Source of the DNA: Planctomycetes bacterium B3_Pla
GTDB taxonomy: Bacteria > Planctomycetota > Phycisphaerae > Sedimentisphaerales > Anaerobacaceae
Length of the DNA stretch: 64,000 bases
NCBI GenBank assembly: GCA_005223045.1
Contig: NJBM01000001.1
Coordinates: 310,001-374,000 of the forward strand
Direction: 5' to 3'
A program made the translations under genes and the position numbers. The notes beneath the pieces are model-generated. The model did no database searches. It had not been told where the DNA came from and saw only the letters and a list, made by a program, of their open reading frames with translations. Below, piece after piece: positions 21,186-63,457 of the stretch; position 1 is the stretch's first letter; each line of letters opens with the position of its first letter.

Positions 21186-23282
21186 TCAGGCAACGTCCGC
21201 TAAGCCCAGCGCATCGCCGAACTTAGCCAACAGCGCCCGGCGGATGTTTTTATGCTCGGCCCGTGTCAACATCGGATCCTGCGAGACCAGCTCGAACGCA
21301 TTTTTCCTGGCCATAACCAGCAGATCAAAGTCGTCCACGATGCTCGCAATTTTCAAATCGGGCAGACCGTGCTGCCGCGTGCTGAACATCTCTCCCGGCC
21401 CTCGCAGCCGTAAATCATGCTCGGCTATCTCAAAACCGTCATTGCTCCTGGTCATTATTTCCAGTCTGCTCCCGGCTGTCTCGTTCTCGGTCTCGGCGAA
21501 CAATAGACAGTATGATTTCGCCTCCGCCCTTCCGATACGGCCTCTTAATTGATGTAATTGCGCCAAGCCAAATTGATCCGCCCCCTCTACTACCATTATC
21601 GTCGCGTTGGGAACATCTACCCCGACCTCCACGACAACAGTCGATACAAGCACATCAATCCTGCCCTTTCGGAACTCGGACATGATTTGTTGCTTCTTCG
21701 CGGAAGGCATTTGCCCGTGCAGAAGCTCAACGGCAAATTCCGGGAAAACCTTCGCCGAAAGATGCTTCCACTCGTCGGTGGCGGCCTTGACGTCGCCGGC
21801 CTGCTCAACCGCCGTGATGCGGGGATAGACGAAATACGCCTGTTTCTTTGCTTTGAGCCGTTCGCGAATAAACTCGTGCGCCTTCCGGCGGTGTTGCCGA
21901 TCGACCCAGCGTGTGACGACGGCGCCTCTGCCCGGAGGCGAGTGCTTGATAACGGACACGTCCAAATCGCCGAACGCTGTCATCGCCAGCGTTCGCGGGA
22001 TGGGGGTCGCGGTCATGACAAGGCAATGCGGCGTGGTTTGTTTTCGCAGTTGTGCGCGCTGGTGAACACCAAATTTGTGCTGTTCGTCAATTACAACCAG
22101 GCCCAACTTCTGAAATTCAATGTCAGCCTGCAACAGGGCCACCGTCCCGACCACAATATCAATCTCGCCGGACTTTATTCTGTCCAGGACCTCATTTCTC
22201 TTTTTGCCCGTCAGACCCCCCGTTATCAGAATCCTCCCGACGCTGCTTTTTCTCAGGTATCGCTCGATGCTCAGAAAGTGCTGGCCGGCCAGAATCTCCG
22301 TAGGCGCCATAATCGCCACTTGCATCCTGTTGGCGACAGCTAACAACGCGGCATAAAGCGCCACGACTGTCTTGCCCGAACCAACGTCACCCTGCAGCAG
22401 TCGGTTCATGGGCTGTGATTTGCCCATATCATCGGCAATTTCAGCTATGCAGCCGTTCTGGTCCTCGGTGAGCAGAAACGGAAAACGCTTTCTGATCCTG
22501 CTGTCGATTTCGTCCGTGCAAACACACTGGCCGGCCGCAGAGAAATGCTGAACTTTGTGCCGGCGAAGCGCCAGCCCCAACTGCATCAGGAACAGCTCGT
22601 CATATTTCAACCTGCGCTTGGCCTGGGCCAGCTTTTTCTCGTCCGGCGGCGAATGTATCCAACGAAACGCATCTTTTCTGCCGATAAGATTTGCCTGTTT
22701 GAGAAAAGGCTTGTCATAGAACTCCTGTATGAGCTGATCGGCTGCGTCGCGTACACGGCTGATTATCTTCTTGATCTGTGCGCTGCTCAATTTGCCGGAC
22801 GCAGGATAGACCCCGCCGCTGAATTGTTCGATCGATTGCGGTTGCTTCTCATCGAGCACGAGAAATTTGGGATTTGTCAACTGCAACTGATGCTTGTACA
22901 GAGCTGCCTTGCCCGATACCATTATGATTTGGCCCGGCTCCAACTGGTTGCGAAGGAATCCCCCGTGAAACCACAGGATCCTGCACACTCCCGTATCGTC
23001 GCTTATCAGAGCTTCAAACATCGGCTGCCGCCGATAACCCTGATAATCCGTTGATTCGATCATGCCGATAACGGTGGCTGTCCTGTCAGGCTCTATTTGA
23101 GATATTTTTGTCGGCTCCGGCAGGAAATTCCAGTCACGCGGATAATACTCCAGCAGATCCCCTACCGTCTCGACTCCCAATTGCGCAAAGGTCTCGGCCC
23201 TGGCCGGCCCGACACCCTTGATATATTGAACCGGCGTTGACAAGTCAAACTTGCTTTGTGATTTTTCACTAACCCCTGTCAT
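21186..23282 (-). CDS. recG: ATP-dependent DNA helicase RecG
   Basis: RecG reverses stalled forks and branch-migrates Holliday junctions. The 698-residue protein opens with a helix-hairpin-helix-like PVQYIKGVGPARAETFAQLG, then the wedge/OB domain (RTATVIGMIES; ITNPKFLVLD-like). The helicase core follows with Walker A GDVGSGKTVVA, the DEQH box (VIDEQHKFGV), MTATPIPRTLAMTAFGDLD, and QLRGRIGRAEAKSYCLL near the C-terminus. All expected motifs are present. It is monocistronic as seen here, with repeat DNA on both sides. Confidence 0.96.
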   Translation of the reverse strand: MTGVSEKSQSKFDLSTPVQYIKGVGPARAETFAQLGVETVGDLLEYYPRDWNFLPEPTKISQIEPDRTATVIGMIESTDYQGYRRQPMFEALISDDTGVCRILWFHGGFLRNQLEPGQIIMVSGKAALYKHQLQLTNPKFLVLDEKQPQSIEQFSGGVYPASGKLSSAQIKKIISRVRDAADQLIQEFYDKPFLKQANLIGRKDAFRWIHSPPDEKKLAQAKRRLKYDELFLMQLGLALRRHKVQHFSAAGQCVCTDEIDSRIRKRFPFLLTEDQNGCIAEIADDMGKSQPMNRLLQGDVGSGKTVVALYAALLAVANRMQVAIMAPTEILAGQHFLSIERYLRKSSVGRILITGGLTGKKRNEVLDRIKSGEIDIVVGTVALLQADIEFQKLGLVVIDEQHKFGVHQRAQLRKQTTPHCLVMTATPIPRTLAMTAFGDLDVSVIKHSPPGRGAVVTRWVDRQHRRKAHEFIRERLKAKKQAYFVYPRITAVEQAGDVKAATDEWKHLSAKVFPEFAVELLHGQMPSAKKQQIMSEFRKGRIDVLVSTVVVEVGVDVPNATIMVVEGADQFGLAQLHQLRGRIGRAEAKSYCLLFAETENETAGSRLEIMTRSNDGFEIAEHDLRLRGPGEMFSTRQHGLPDLKIASIVDDFDLLVMARKNAFELVSQDPMLTRAEHKNIRRALLAKFGDALGLADVA

Positions 23283-23315
23283 TCCTGCTTCTTTATAACG
23301 TTATCGCTTATTTAT

Positions 23316-23422
23316 GTCATTCCCGCTTCTCTTTGTCATTCCCGCCTCTCTTTGTCATTCCCGCGAAAGCGGGAATCCACTTAACAGCGACCGTTCTGGA
23401 TTCCTGCTTTCGCAGGAATGAC
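23316..23422. repeat. dRS3-like GTCATTCCCGC repeats
   Basis: Three GTCATTCCCGC copies occur in a row; the third pairs with GCGGGAAT, giving ATTCCCGCGAAAGCGGGAAT. An inverted partner (GGATTCCTGCTTTCGCAGGAATGAC) closes the cluster. The core resembles the dRS3-type 20-mer (ATTCCC, 8 bases, GGGAAT) of Neisseria and similar repeats in other phyla. It lies between the end of pcm and the start of recG. Confidence 0.8.
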
Positions 23423-54948: not shown

Positions 54949-54974
54949 TCGCGAACCATATATTAAACAACAAA

Positions 54975-55125
54975 GGGAACCAGGTTATCAGGTTATCAGG
55001 ATGTAAGCGATCAGGGTCTCAGGGAATCAGGGAATACAGCAACCCCGATAGACGTGCATCGGGGGATGCACCTGATATTCTGATAACCTGATAACCACTA
55101 CCTGATAAACTGATACCCTGATGCC
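54975..55125. repeat. ATCAGG-word hairpin repeat
   Basis: AGGTTATCAGGTTATCAGG and further ATCAGGG words on the left face CCTGATATTCTGATAACC and CCTGATAAACTGATACC words on the right. It lies between purF and purM and can form a long imperfect stem in the transcript. Confidence 0.85.
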
Positions 55126-62246: not shown

Positions 62247-62311
62247 GGCGGATAGCGTAGAGCGGATAGCGGATAAGGCATAGGCTCTTAATACGCTATA
62301 CGCTGTTTTTT
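62247..62311. repeat. GCGGATAGCG-word hairpin
   Basis: GGCGGATAGCGTAGAGCGG words face ACGCTATACGCTG words across a short spacer. The same words are found in frame inside the propeller gene at 13172-13218. Confidence 0.75.
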
Positions 62312-62332
62312 ATATGCGAAAGGACGTAAACC

Positions 62333-63457
62333 ATGGGAAATAACAGACTTAACGCATTGCCGATTTGTGACAATCGAAAACCGAAAATCGAAAACCGAAA
62401 ATACATTCGGCAACCGTTCATAGCCGCAACCTTTGTGCCTTTGTGCCTTTGTGCCTTTGTGCTCTTTAACCTGAGTTGCAGATCCAAGAGCACTGAGGAA
62501 TCCAAGGCCGATAAATCCGAACCTAATGCCGTTGCTACATCGGTCGCCGACGATGTTGCCGTTACGGTCAACGGAGTCGATATCCTCCGGAGCGAGGTGG
62601 AAAAGCTCATCAGGCCTCAGCTTGATGCGGTGGCCGAACAGGCCAGACAACAGCCGCCCCAGGTGCTTGCGCAAATCGCCGCCCAGTTCAGACAGGAGAC
62701 CCTGGAACAGCTCATCCGCAGGCAATTGCTGGACGGAAAGATACAGCAGTCCAACATCATAGTCACCGACGAAGAGGTAATGAGCCAGATCCGAGAGATT
62801 GCCTCGGCCCAGGAATTGTCGGTGGAGGATTTCTTCAAGACATTGGAGCAGTACGGCAGCAGTGCTGAGGAAATAAAAGAGGACGTTCGCAGAGGACTTT
62901 CACGCAACAAGTTCATGGAAATCCAATGGGCGGGCAAGATAAACGTCACAGAAGACGATGCGAAGCAGTATTACGACGAGAAACCGGAGCGTTTTAGAGT
63001 GCCCGAGCAAGTCAGAGTCAGCCATATCCTCATTACACCCGAAGCCGGCGCCGATCCAAACGAGGCCCAAGCAAAGGCCAGGATAAAGAGTGAAGATTTG
63101 CTCAGACAAATCAAAGGCGGAGCAGATTTTGCCGAATTAGCCAGGACCAATTCTTCCTGCCCGTCAGCCCCGGATGGCGGCGATCTGAACTTCTTCCCAA
63201 GAGGTAAGACAACACCGGCTTTTGAGAAGGTAGCTTTCGAGTTGGACATCGGGCAGATGAGCGACGTGGTGGAAACCGAATTCGGGTACCACATAATAAA
63301 AGCCACCGGCCACAAAGATCCAAGTGTCATTTCGTTTGAGCGGGCTAAGGACAGGATAATAGCACAGCTAACGGCACAGAAACAGTCTGCATTCGCCGAA
63401 AACTTCCTCAAGACGCTCAAGGCCGAAGCTGAAATAACCTATCCGTCAGGCCAATAG
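62333..63457 (+). CDS. Parvulin-type peptidyl-prolyl isomerase lipoprotein (PpiC/SurA-like)
   Basis: A 374-residue protein. A SurA-like N-terminal helical domain spans about residues 60-200 (VAVTVNGVDILRSEVEKLI). The parvulin domain follows: VRVSHILITPEAGADPNEA, IKGGADFAELARTNSSCPSAPDGGDLNFFPRGK and FELDIGQMSDVVETEFGYHIIKATG. It should help fold proteins outside the inner membrane. The signal region is odd: residues 13-24 come from CGAAAA-type words, and the hydrophobic core (TFVPLCLCAFVLF) comes from four exact 8-bp CCTTTGTG repeats. FNLSC may serve as a weak lipobox. Earlier start codons are absent, so this signal seems real. Confidence 0.88.
   Translation: MGNNRLNALPICDNRKPKIENRKYIRQPFIAATFVPLCLCAFVLFNLSCRSKSTEESKADKSEPNAVATSVADDVAVTVNGVDILRSEVEKLIRPQLDAVAEQARQQPPQVLAQIAAQFRQETLEQLIRRQLLDGKIQQSNIIVTDEEVMSQIREIASAQELSVEDFFKTLEQYGSSAEEIKEDVRRGLSRNKFMEIQWAGKINVTEDDAKQYYDEKPERFRVPEQVRVSHILITPEAGADPNEAQAKARIKSEDLLRQIKGGADFAELARTNSSCPSAPDGGDLNFFPRGKTTPAFEKVAFELDIGQMSDVVETEFGYHIIKATGHKDPSVISFERAKDRIIAQLTAQKQSAFAENFLKTLKAEAEITYPSGQ
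62372..62401. repeat. AATCGAAAACCG words inside the PpiC-like gene
   Basis: Two alternating copies of AATCGAAAACCGAAA, encoding NRKPKIENRK. They resemble the words at 21121-21182. Confidence 0.8.
62430..62461. repeat. Four tandem CCTTTGTG octamers encoding a signal peptide core
   Basis: Four exact 8-bp copies. Because 8 is not a multiple of 3, the reading frame cycles and gives Phe-Val-Pro-Leu-Cys-Leu-Cys-Ala in 24 bases, all hydrophobic. Confidence 0.95.

What the first reader, a model, noticed from the sequence alone, without database searches (positions are those of the whole stretch)
62372..62461. Signal peptide built from tandem repeats
The N-terminus of the PpiC-like protein is made of two repeat types. 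Four exact CCTTTGTG octamers give FVPLCLCAFVL, a hydrophobic core in every frame. This is a plausible route for making an export signal from repeat DNA, and loss or gain of one octamer would shift the frame, offering phase variation.
Basis: partly seen in the sequence, partly recalled or inferred. Interest (0 to 1): 0.66.

Follow-up and report, generated by a model that had tools for sequence, protein, structure and literature searches.

The report
Repeat DNA rebuilt into signal peptides
A short DNA repeat that reads as greasy protein in all three frames of one strand and as positively charged protein on the other has taken over the export signal of a bacterial chaperone, and the same repeat family has done this to other exported proteins in related bacteria.

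Summary
Four exact CCTTTGTG copies (62430-62461) and a 14-bp repeat (62372-62402) make up most of the N-terminus of a PpiC/SurA-like lipoprotein (62333-63457). ATG 62333 carries the ribosome site conserved in relatives. None of 29 related loci has the octamers. Close relatives reach the lipobox cysteine after 23-25 residues; here it takes 49. So repeat DNA lengthened or replaced an existing export signal rather than inventing one. It is not unique. The octamer family is dispersed in this bacterial order. In five further gene families octamer arrays form the signal peptide's core while repeat-free relatives have ordinary signals. The clearest is an in-frame hairpin insertion between same-genus species. 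Sense arrays give PLCLCAFV (hydrophobic) and antisense arrays KGTKAQRH (basic), in every frame. Antisense arrays also sit in frame inside enzymes such as AroE and MurE. Phase variation is not supported: copies 1, 4 or 7 keep the frame, but two arrays compared across species drift in sequence without changing length; strain data were not available. The closest precedents are the enterobacterial RU-2 repeat in a predicted signal peptide and Rickettsia palindromic elements. I call it a new variant of a known kind.

The parts
62248..62275 (+). GCGGATA heptamer array (4.0 copies), upstream of the gene, untranslated
62319..62324 (+). ribosome-binding site AAAGGA, 8 nt before ATG 62333
   Evidence: read; the same GAAAGGA-type motif precedes the start in most of the 29 related loci
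62333..63457 (+). PpiC/SurA-like peptidyl-prolyl isomerase lipoprotein, 374 aa
   Evidence: Rotamase_3 2.9e-28, SurA_N_3 3.9e-16
62333..62479 (+). signal peptide region to the putative lipobox cysteine (residue 49)
   Evidence: translation; compared with relatives
62372..62402 (+). 14-bp repeat (two AAAAYCG-type heptamers), encodes the basic n-region NRKPKIENRK
   Evidence: the heptamer pattern occurs at two further places in the genome, reversed control 0
62430..62467 (+). CCTTTGTG array, four exact copies plus partial, encodes the hydrophobic core FVPLCLCAFVLF
62999..63310 (+). PPIC-type PPIase domain (residues 223-326)

Best explanation
The repeats are a working part of the signal peptide of an exported PpiC/SurA-like lipoprotein. 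An ancestral lipoprotein signal of about 25 residues was lengthened to 49 when short-repeat DNA got into it and was kept in frame: a heptamer-type repeat now encodes the basic n-region and CCTTTGTG copies the hydrophobic core. This is one case of a wider process in this bacterial order, in which members of a dispersed CCTTTGTG/CACAAAGG family enter genes in frame. They survive where their sequence is tolerated: sense arrays (PLCLCAFV in every frame) in signal-peptide cores, antisense arrays (KGTKAQRH in every frame) in n-regions, surface loops and tails. The unit has no stop in six frames, so only net length decides survival. Shown: anatomy, conserved start, absence from relatives, and other cases with repeat-free relatives. 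Inferred: that export works, and that the window's array grew by tandem duplication from a seed octamer (1 to 4 copies adds exactly 8 residues).
For: The start site is conserved and 0 of 29 related loci have octamers within -300 to +250 of the start. NagB-like coding sequence lies downstream in the window and in L003, L005 and L020 (read). Independent takeovers: (a) G000:C41, MRKNRFHQEK[AQKHRATKAQRGPIITLLLCAFVPLQFCLF]CLPAVGADTG against MRKNRFQQEKTVVVLLGIALACLPAIGADTG in an 84% relative without octamers; (b) G002:C132, an insertion after MKTKV that is absent from same-genus relatives at 84% and 85%; (c) a TPR/peptidase-MA protein with the array in G001 and G002 but not in G000; (d) a lipoprotein in G087 and its congener G020, with other signals in other genera; (e) a PQQ protein at G000:C34. 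Orientation sorting among homology-supported, single-orientation cases: sense 5 of 6 in signal peptides, antisense 0 of 8, Fisher P = 0.003. Arrays in signal peptides: 6 of 114 against 1.7 expected, P = 0.007.
Against: No export was measured and no SignalP-type predictor was available. In the window itself insertion and local expansion cannot be told apart, because no close relative (above 60% identity) was found. The window array lacks the inverted partner and hairpin seen in two of the other cases. Residue -3 of the lipobox is N, which is unusual. The 6 and the 5-of-6 counts rest on cases I classified after seeing them. One sense array sits in a sulfatase C-terminal tail, outside any signal peptide. 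Most arrays lie outside genes or could not be placed: 47 of 114 had no qualifying open frame.
Confidence: 0.74

Rival explanations
1. Pure local slippage: one octamer that happened to lie in the ancestral hydrophobic core was tandemly multiplied from 1 to 4 copies. This added 8 residues neutrally and has nothing to do with the dispersed family.
For: The exact 16-mer occurs only here in the genome. The four copies are identical, while other copies in the genome are degenerate. With one copy the core reads FIAATFVLFNLSC, close in length to relatives.
Against: It does not explain the second repeat in the same signal, the extra 24 residues, or the other genes with octamer-built signals. Degenerate arrays of the same family are elsewhere in the genome.
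Confidence: 0.18
2. Phase-variable contingency locus: octamer gain or loss switches the chaperone on and off.
For: Only 1, 4 or 7 copies keep the frame; 2, 3, 5 and 6 give 41-50 residue peptides.
Against: There are only four copies. In two other octamer-built signals, species pairs differ by unit substitutions and not by copy number. The gene belongs to a family found in 59 of 61 genomes, which is not a typical contingency gene.
Confidence: 0.05
3. Annotation artefact: the true start is downstream and the repeats are untranslated.
For: GTG and TTG codons occur in the array.
Against: Starting after the array leaves at most MLFNLSC before the cysteine, with no n-region. ATG 62333 has the ribosome site conserved in relatives, and relatives have signals at this position.
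Confidence: 0.03

Closest known systems
[quoted passage not shown] homologues in other genera have unrelated signals.
   Different: RU-2 is a 168-bp element; here the unit is 8 bp, hydrophobic in all three sense frames and basic in all three antisense frames, and the takeover recurs in several gene families.
Rickettsia palindromic elements (described in PMC10969869, passages read; original papers not read)
   Same: Repeat elements sitting in frame in unrelated genes; hairpin form in two of the cases here.
   Different: About 150 bp against an 8-bp unit; no sorting by orientation into signal peptides was seen in the passages read.
PARCELs (PMC2996958, abstract read)
   Same: Palindromic repeat DNA read as protein and co-opted in membrane-targeted proteins.
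   Different: 25-residue repeats forming mature domains, not signal peptides.
Heptameric direct repeats in bacterial intergenic DNA (PMC4679880, PMC4692102, search listing only) and cyanobacterial STRR (recalled)
   Same: Short-unit dispersed direct repeats.
   Different: Described as intergenic or regulatory in the listings; not as signal-peptide parts.

Membership tests
PpiC/SurA-like periplasmic PPIase lipoprotein | SurA_N and PPIC rotamase domains | tested here: met
PpiC/SurA-like periplasmic PPIase lipoprotein | N-terminal lipoprotein signal with lipobox cysteine | tested here: inconclusive
   FNLSC at residues 45-49; relatives end in SLSC, SVSC or NLNC; no predictor or experiment
Phase-variable simple-sequence contingency locus | copy number not a multiple of 3 nt switches the frame | tested here: met
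Phase-variable simple-sequence contingency locus | copy number varies among cells or strains | not testable with these tools
   one genome per species and no reads; between species, two comparable arrays kept their length
In-frame dispersed repeat elements (RPE/RU type) | same repeat family in frame in several unrelated genes | tested here: met
In-frame dispersed repeat elements (RPE/RU type) | insertion visible against an empty site in a relative | tested here: met
   G002 against G001 and G000; not shown for the window gene
In-frame dispersed repeat elements (RPE/RU type) | palindromic or hairpin form | tested here: inconclusive
   met for L282 (z -6.5) and L329 (z -3.7); not met for the window (z +0.5)

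The most novel reading that the evidence does not exclude
The CCTTTGTG/CACAAAGG family behaves as a ready-made signal-peptide donor. Its inverted form encodes a basic n-region followed by a hydrophobic core whatever the frame, so one insertion can swap a protein's export signal. The unit may have spread partly because it is tolerated or useful in coding DNA in either orientation.
Probability: 0.22. Interest if true: 0.82.

Novelty: new variant of a known kind. Interest (0 to 1): 0.63.

Why it matters
Signal peptides change fast and tolerate many sequences, but cases where the donor DNA can be traced are rare (recalled, not searched exhaustively). Here the donor is an 8-bp repeat whose coding content does not depend on frame, with empty-site relatives in the same genus for one of the genes, so the step from non-coding repeat to export signal can be tested directly. 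It also predicts which repeat families can enter genes and where: those that are hydrophobic on one strand, basic on the other and free of stops in six frames.

Tried and rejected
Origin of export from nothing: rejected, relatives already have signals. A window hairpin: rejected, z +0.5. The octamer as an exact repeat elsewhere in the genome: rejected, the 16-mer is only here, though degenerate forms exist. The GTDB survey (170 arrays in 114 stretches) gave sense 21 and antisense 7 arrays open for at least 100 codons with any start. I did not build on it: on inspection many looked like arrays upstream of genes, and one Opitutales genome supplied much of the set. In the order survey (114 arrays) the same count was 14 sense and 12 antisense, so open-frame counts alone show no bias there. 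L277 was dropped as a case because a normal lipoprotein start lies inside it. L237 (RecJ), L273 and L243 were read as arrays upstream of the true start and dropped. L224, L271, L245, L228, L305, L323, L270 and L278 were left out of the Fisher count for want of Pfam or relative support. L329 and L282 were left out of the P = 0.003 count because they carry both orientations; with them the table is 7 of 8 against 0 of 8, P = 0.0014. Paper searches for the octamer alone (578 papers, the 20 listed all unrelated) and for signal peptide with repeats gave nothing on this repeat in their listings.

Full report
What is there. The ORF 62333-63457 encodes a 374-residue PpiC/SurA-like peptidyl-prolyl isomerase. 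Its N-terminus reads MGNNRLNALPICDNRKPKIENRKYIRQPFIAATFVPLCLCAFVLFNLSC. A 14-bp repeat at 62372-62402 encodes the basic stretch, and four exact CCTTTGTG units at 62430-62461 encode the hydrophobic core. The array is the longest perfect tandem run of period 4-15 in the window: 33 bp, against a maximum of 24 in 20 Markov resamplings. Because 8 is not a multiple of 3, every sense frame gives the same cycle PLCLCAFV (mean hydropathy 2.48) and every antisense frame KGTKAQRH (mean -2.29), with no stop in six frames. Of all 65,536 octamers, 1,623 read in tandem reach a mean of 2.0 or more without a stop on that strand.

Is the start right? ATG 62333 follows AAAGGA at 8 nt. A GAAAGGA-type site stands at the same place in most related loci. 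The first call recovered matches in 59 of 61 genomes, and the best 29 besides the window were read as loci. None of these 29 has an octamer of either orientation within -300 to +250 of the start; some contigs are cut short upstream. I read 19 of the 29 by eye as lipoprotein-like (a cysteine after a short hydrophobic stretch) and 10 as other hydrophobic N-termini. The three closest reach the cysteine at residue 25 and L020 at 23; the window reaches it at 49. NagB-like coding sequence lies downstream in the window and in L003, L005 and L020 (read), which supports orthology. So repeat DNA lengthened or replaced an existing signal. The closest relative is only 60% identical, so the window case alone cannot tell insertion from slippage. 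With 1, 4 or 7 copies the frame is kept; with 2, 3, 5 or 6 the product is 41-50 residues.

A dispersed family. The exact 16-mer occurs only here in the genome, but degenerate octamer arrays occur at further places (13 rows for the 24-mer with up to 3 mismatches, two of them the window's own, reversed control 0). In the order, 26 of 161 genomes hold the exact 16-mer, with the reversed control 0 in all. 24 of 161 hold CTYTGTGCCTYTGTGCC, with one reversed-control match. In GTDB genomes 114 stretches hold the 32-mer, from records named Opitutales, Bacteroidetes, Spirochaetes, Deltaproteobacteria and others. The heptamer of the second repeat also occurs at two further places in the genome.

Other signal peptides made of it. 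I fetched 110 places (90 merged, 20; the window's own was left out) and found 114 arrays. Five further gene families show an octamer-built signal with repeat-free relatives. (a) G000:C41: MRKNRFHQEK[AQKHRATKAQRGPIITLLLCAFVPLQFCLF]CLPAVGADTG, where relatives at 84%, 80% and 77% identity read MRKNRFQQEKTVVVLLGIALACLPAIGADTG or similar. (b) G002:C132, a LamG protein: MKTKV[KAQRHKVAKAQSASVPLCLCAFVPL]YLCIASTGSAFAA against MKTKVPYLLLCICVASPGSAVAA in G001 (84%) and MKTKLSYLVLVCTCVASIGGVSAA in G000 (85%); the alignment shows a 57-nt gap. (c) A TPR/peptidase-MA protein whose signal has sense octamers in G001 and G002 (90% identical) but not in G000 (75%). (d) A lipoprotein of G087, RISLCLCAFVPLCLICLSGC, kept as RIYLCLCLFVPLCLICFAGC in its congener G020 (67%), while other genera have other signals. 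(e) A PQQ protein, G000:C34, with ordinary-looking hydrophobic N-termini in relatives at 64-83%. In (c) and (d) the species differ by base changes in the units, not in array length.

Sorting by orientation. Antisense arrays lie in frame inside genes with Pfam support: AroDE (L232), MurE (L263), ParB (L265), a DnaX-like protein (L309), a UvrD-like helicase (L223), an LptC-like protein (L222), and the tails of UvrB (L290) and an EngA-like GTPase (L246). One sense array lies in a sulfatase tail (L261). Among homology-supported arrays of one orientation, sense arrays are in signal peptides in 5 of 6 cases (window, L276, L221, L257, L324; not L261) and antisense in 0 of 8, P = 0.003. I classified these after seeing them and dropped the rows listed under Tried and rejected. 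L221 also has some antisense units in its n-region and a shorter possible start inside. As a crude density test, signal-peptide DNA makes up 1.5% of the 110 loci by a generous rule; 6 of 114 arrays in signals (L224, L257, L276, L282, L324, L329) against 1.7 expected gives P = 0.007.

How it works. The unit is stop-free in six frames, hydrophobic one way and basic the other. Signal peptides need only a basic n-region and a hydrophobic core (established knowledge), so the inverted form of the repeat can supply both, as in (a) and (b), where the RNA is predicted to fold as a strong hairpin (z -3.7 and -6.5). The window has no such hairpin (z +0.5) and uses a heptamer-type repeat for its n-region instead. 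Whether the arrays move as elements or arise locally is not known.

What is known. [quoted passage not shown] Rickettsia palindromic elements sit in frame in many genes (PMC10969869, passages). A survey of prokaryote satellites notes heptamer- and hexamer-derived families in bacteria and rare non-coding families (PMC6749651, passages). A search for PLCLCAFV, KGTKAQRH and the two 16-mers found 0 papers in the held library. So the kind is known; the frame-independent unit, its recurrence in signal peptides and the orientation sorting are the new parts.

Limits. No export data, no signal-peptide predictor, no strains or reads; the genomes behind the survey are unnamed and many are fragmentary. 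The taxon of the window was not established.

Noticed in passing
L232, L263, L265, L309, L223, L222, L290, L246: Antisense octamer arrays (KGTKAQRH-like) in frame inside or at the tail of AroDE, MurE, ParB, DnaX-like, UvrD-like, LptC-like, UvrB and EngA-like proteins.
   Followed up: partly
L134:95-1771 and L137 (Verrucomicrobia, Opitutia/Opitutales records): Two similar proteins (LTAS-QTPEEAEAYYE... region) in different genomes both have CCTTTGTG arrays in a signal-peptide-like N-terminus, outside the window's order.
   Followed up: no
JAJDZZ records (Opitutales bacterium jk18x7bins.13), many of L078-L156: One genome carries a very large number of CCTTTGTG arrays, on both strands.
   Followed up: no
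window 2136, 2564, 16106, 19276, 21150, 40573, 43620, 48577, 52666 and others: Many period-7 tandem arrays of several families (AATTCTA, TCGTATA, AAAATCG, TCGTCCC) in 64 kb.
   Followed up: no
window 23277-23364: 19-bp TGTCATTCCCGCTTCTCTA tandem repeat, 4.6 copies.
   Followed up: no
window 54974-55122: CAGGTTAT / ATCAGGGA / ACCTGATA period-8 arrays close together.
   Followed up: no
L370 (G000:C47:19219): The AAAAYCG heptamer array lies in frame in a long open frame (500 codons before, 414 after).
   Followed up: no
L276 N-terminus and L330: Several heptamer families (GACGAAG, CGTCCATC) sit next to octamers in the same stretch, as if short repeats cluster.
   Followed up: no
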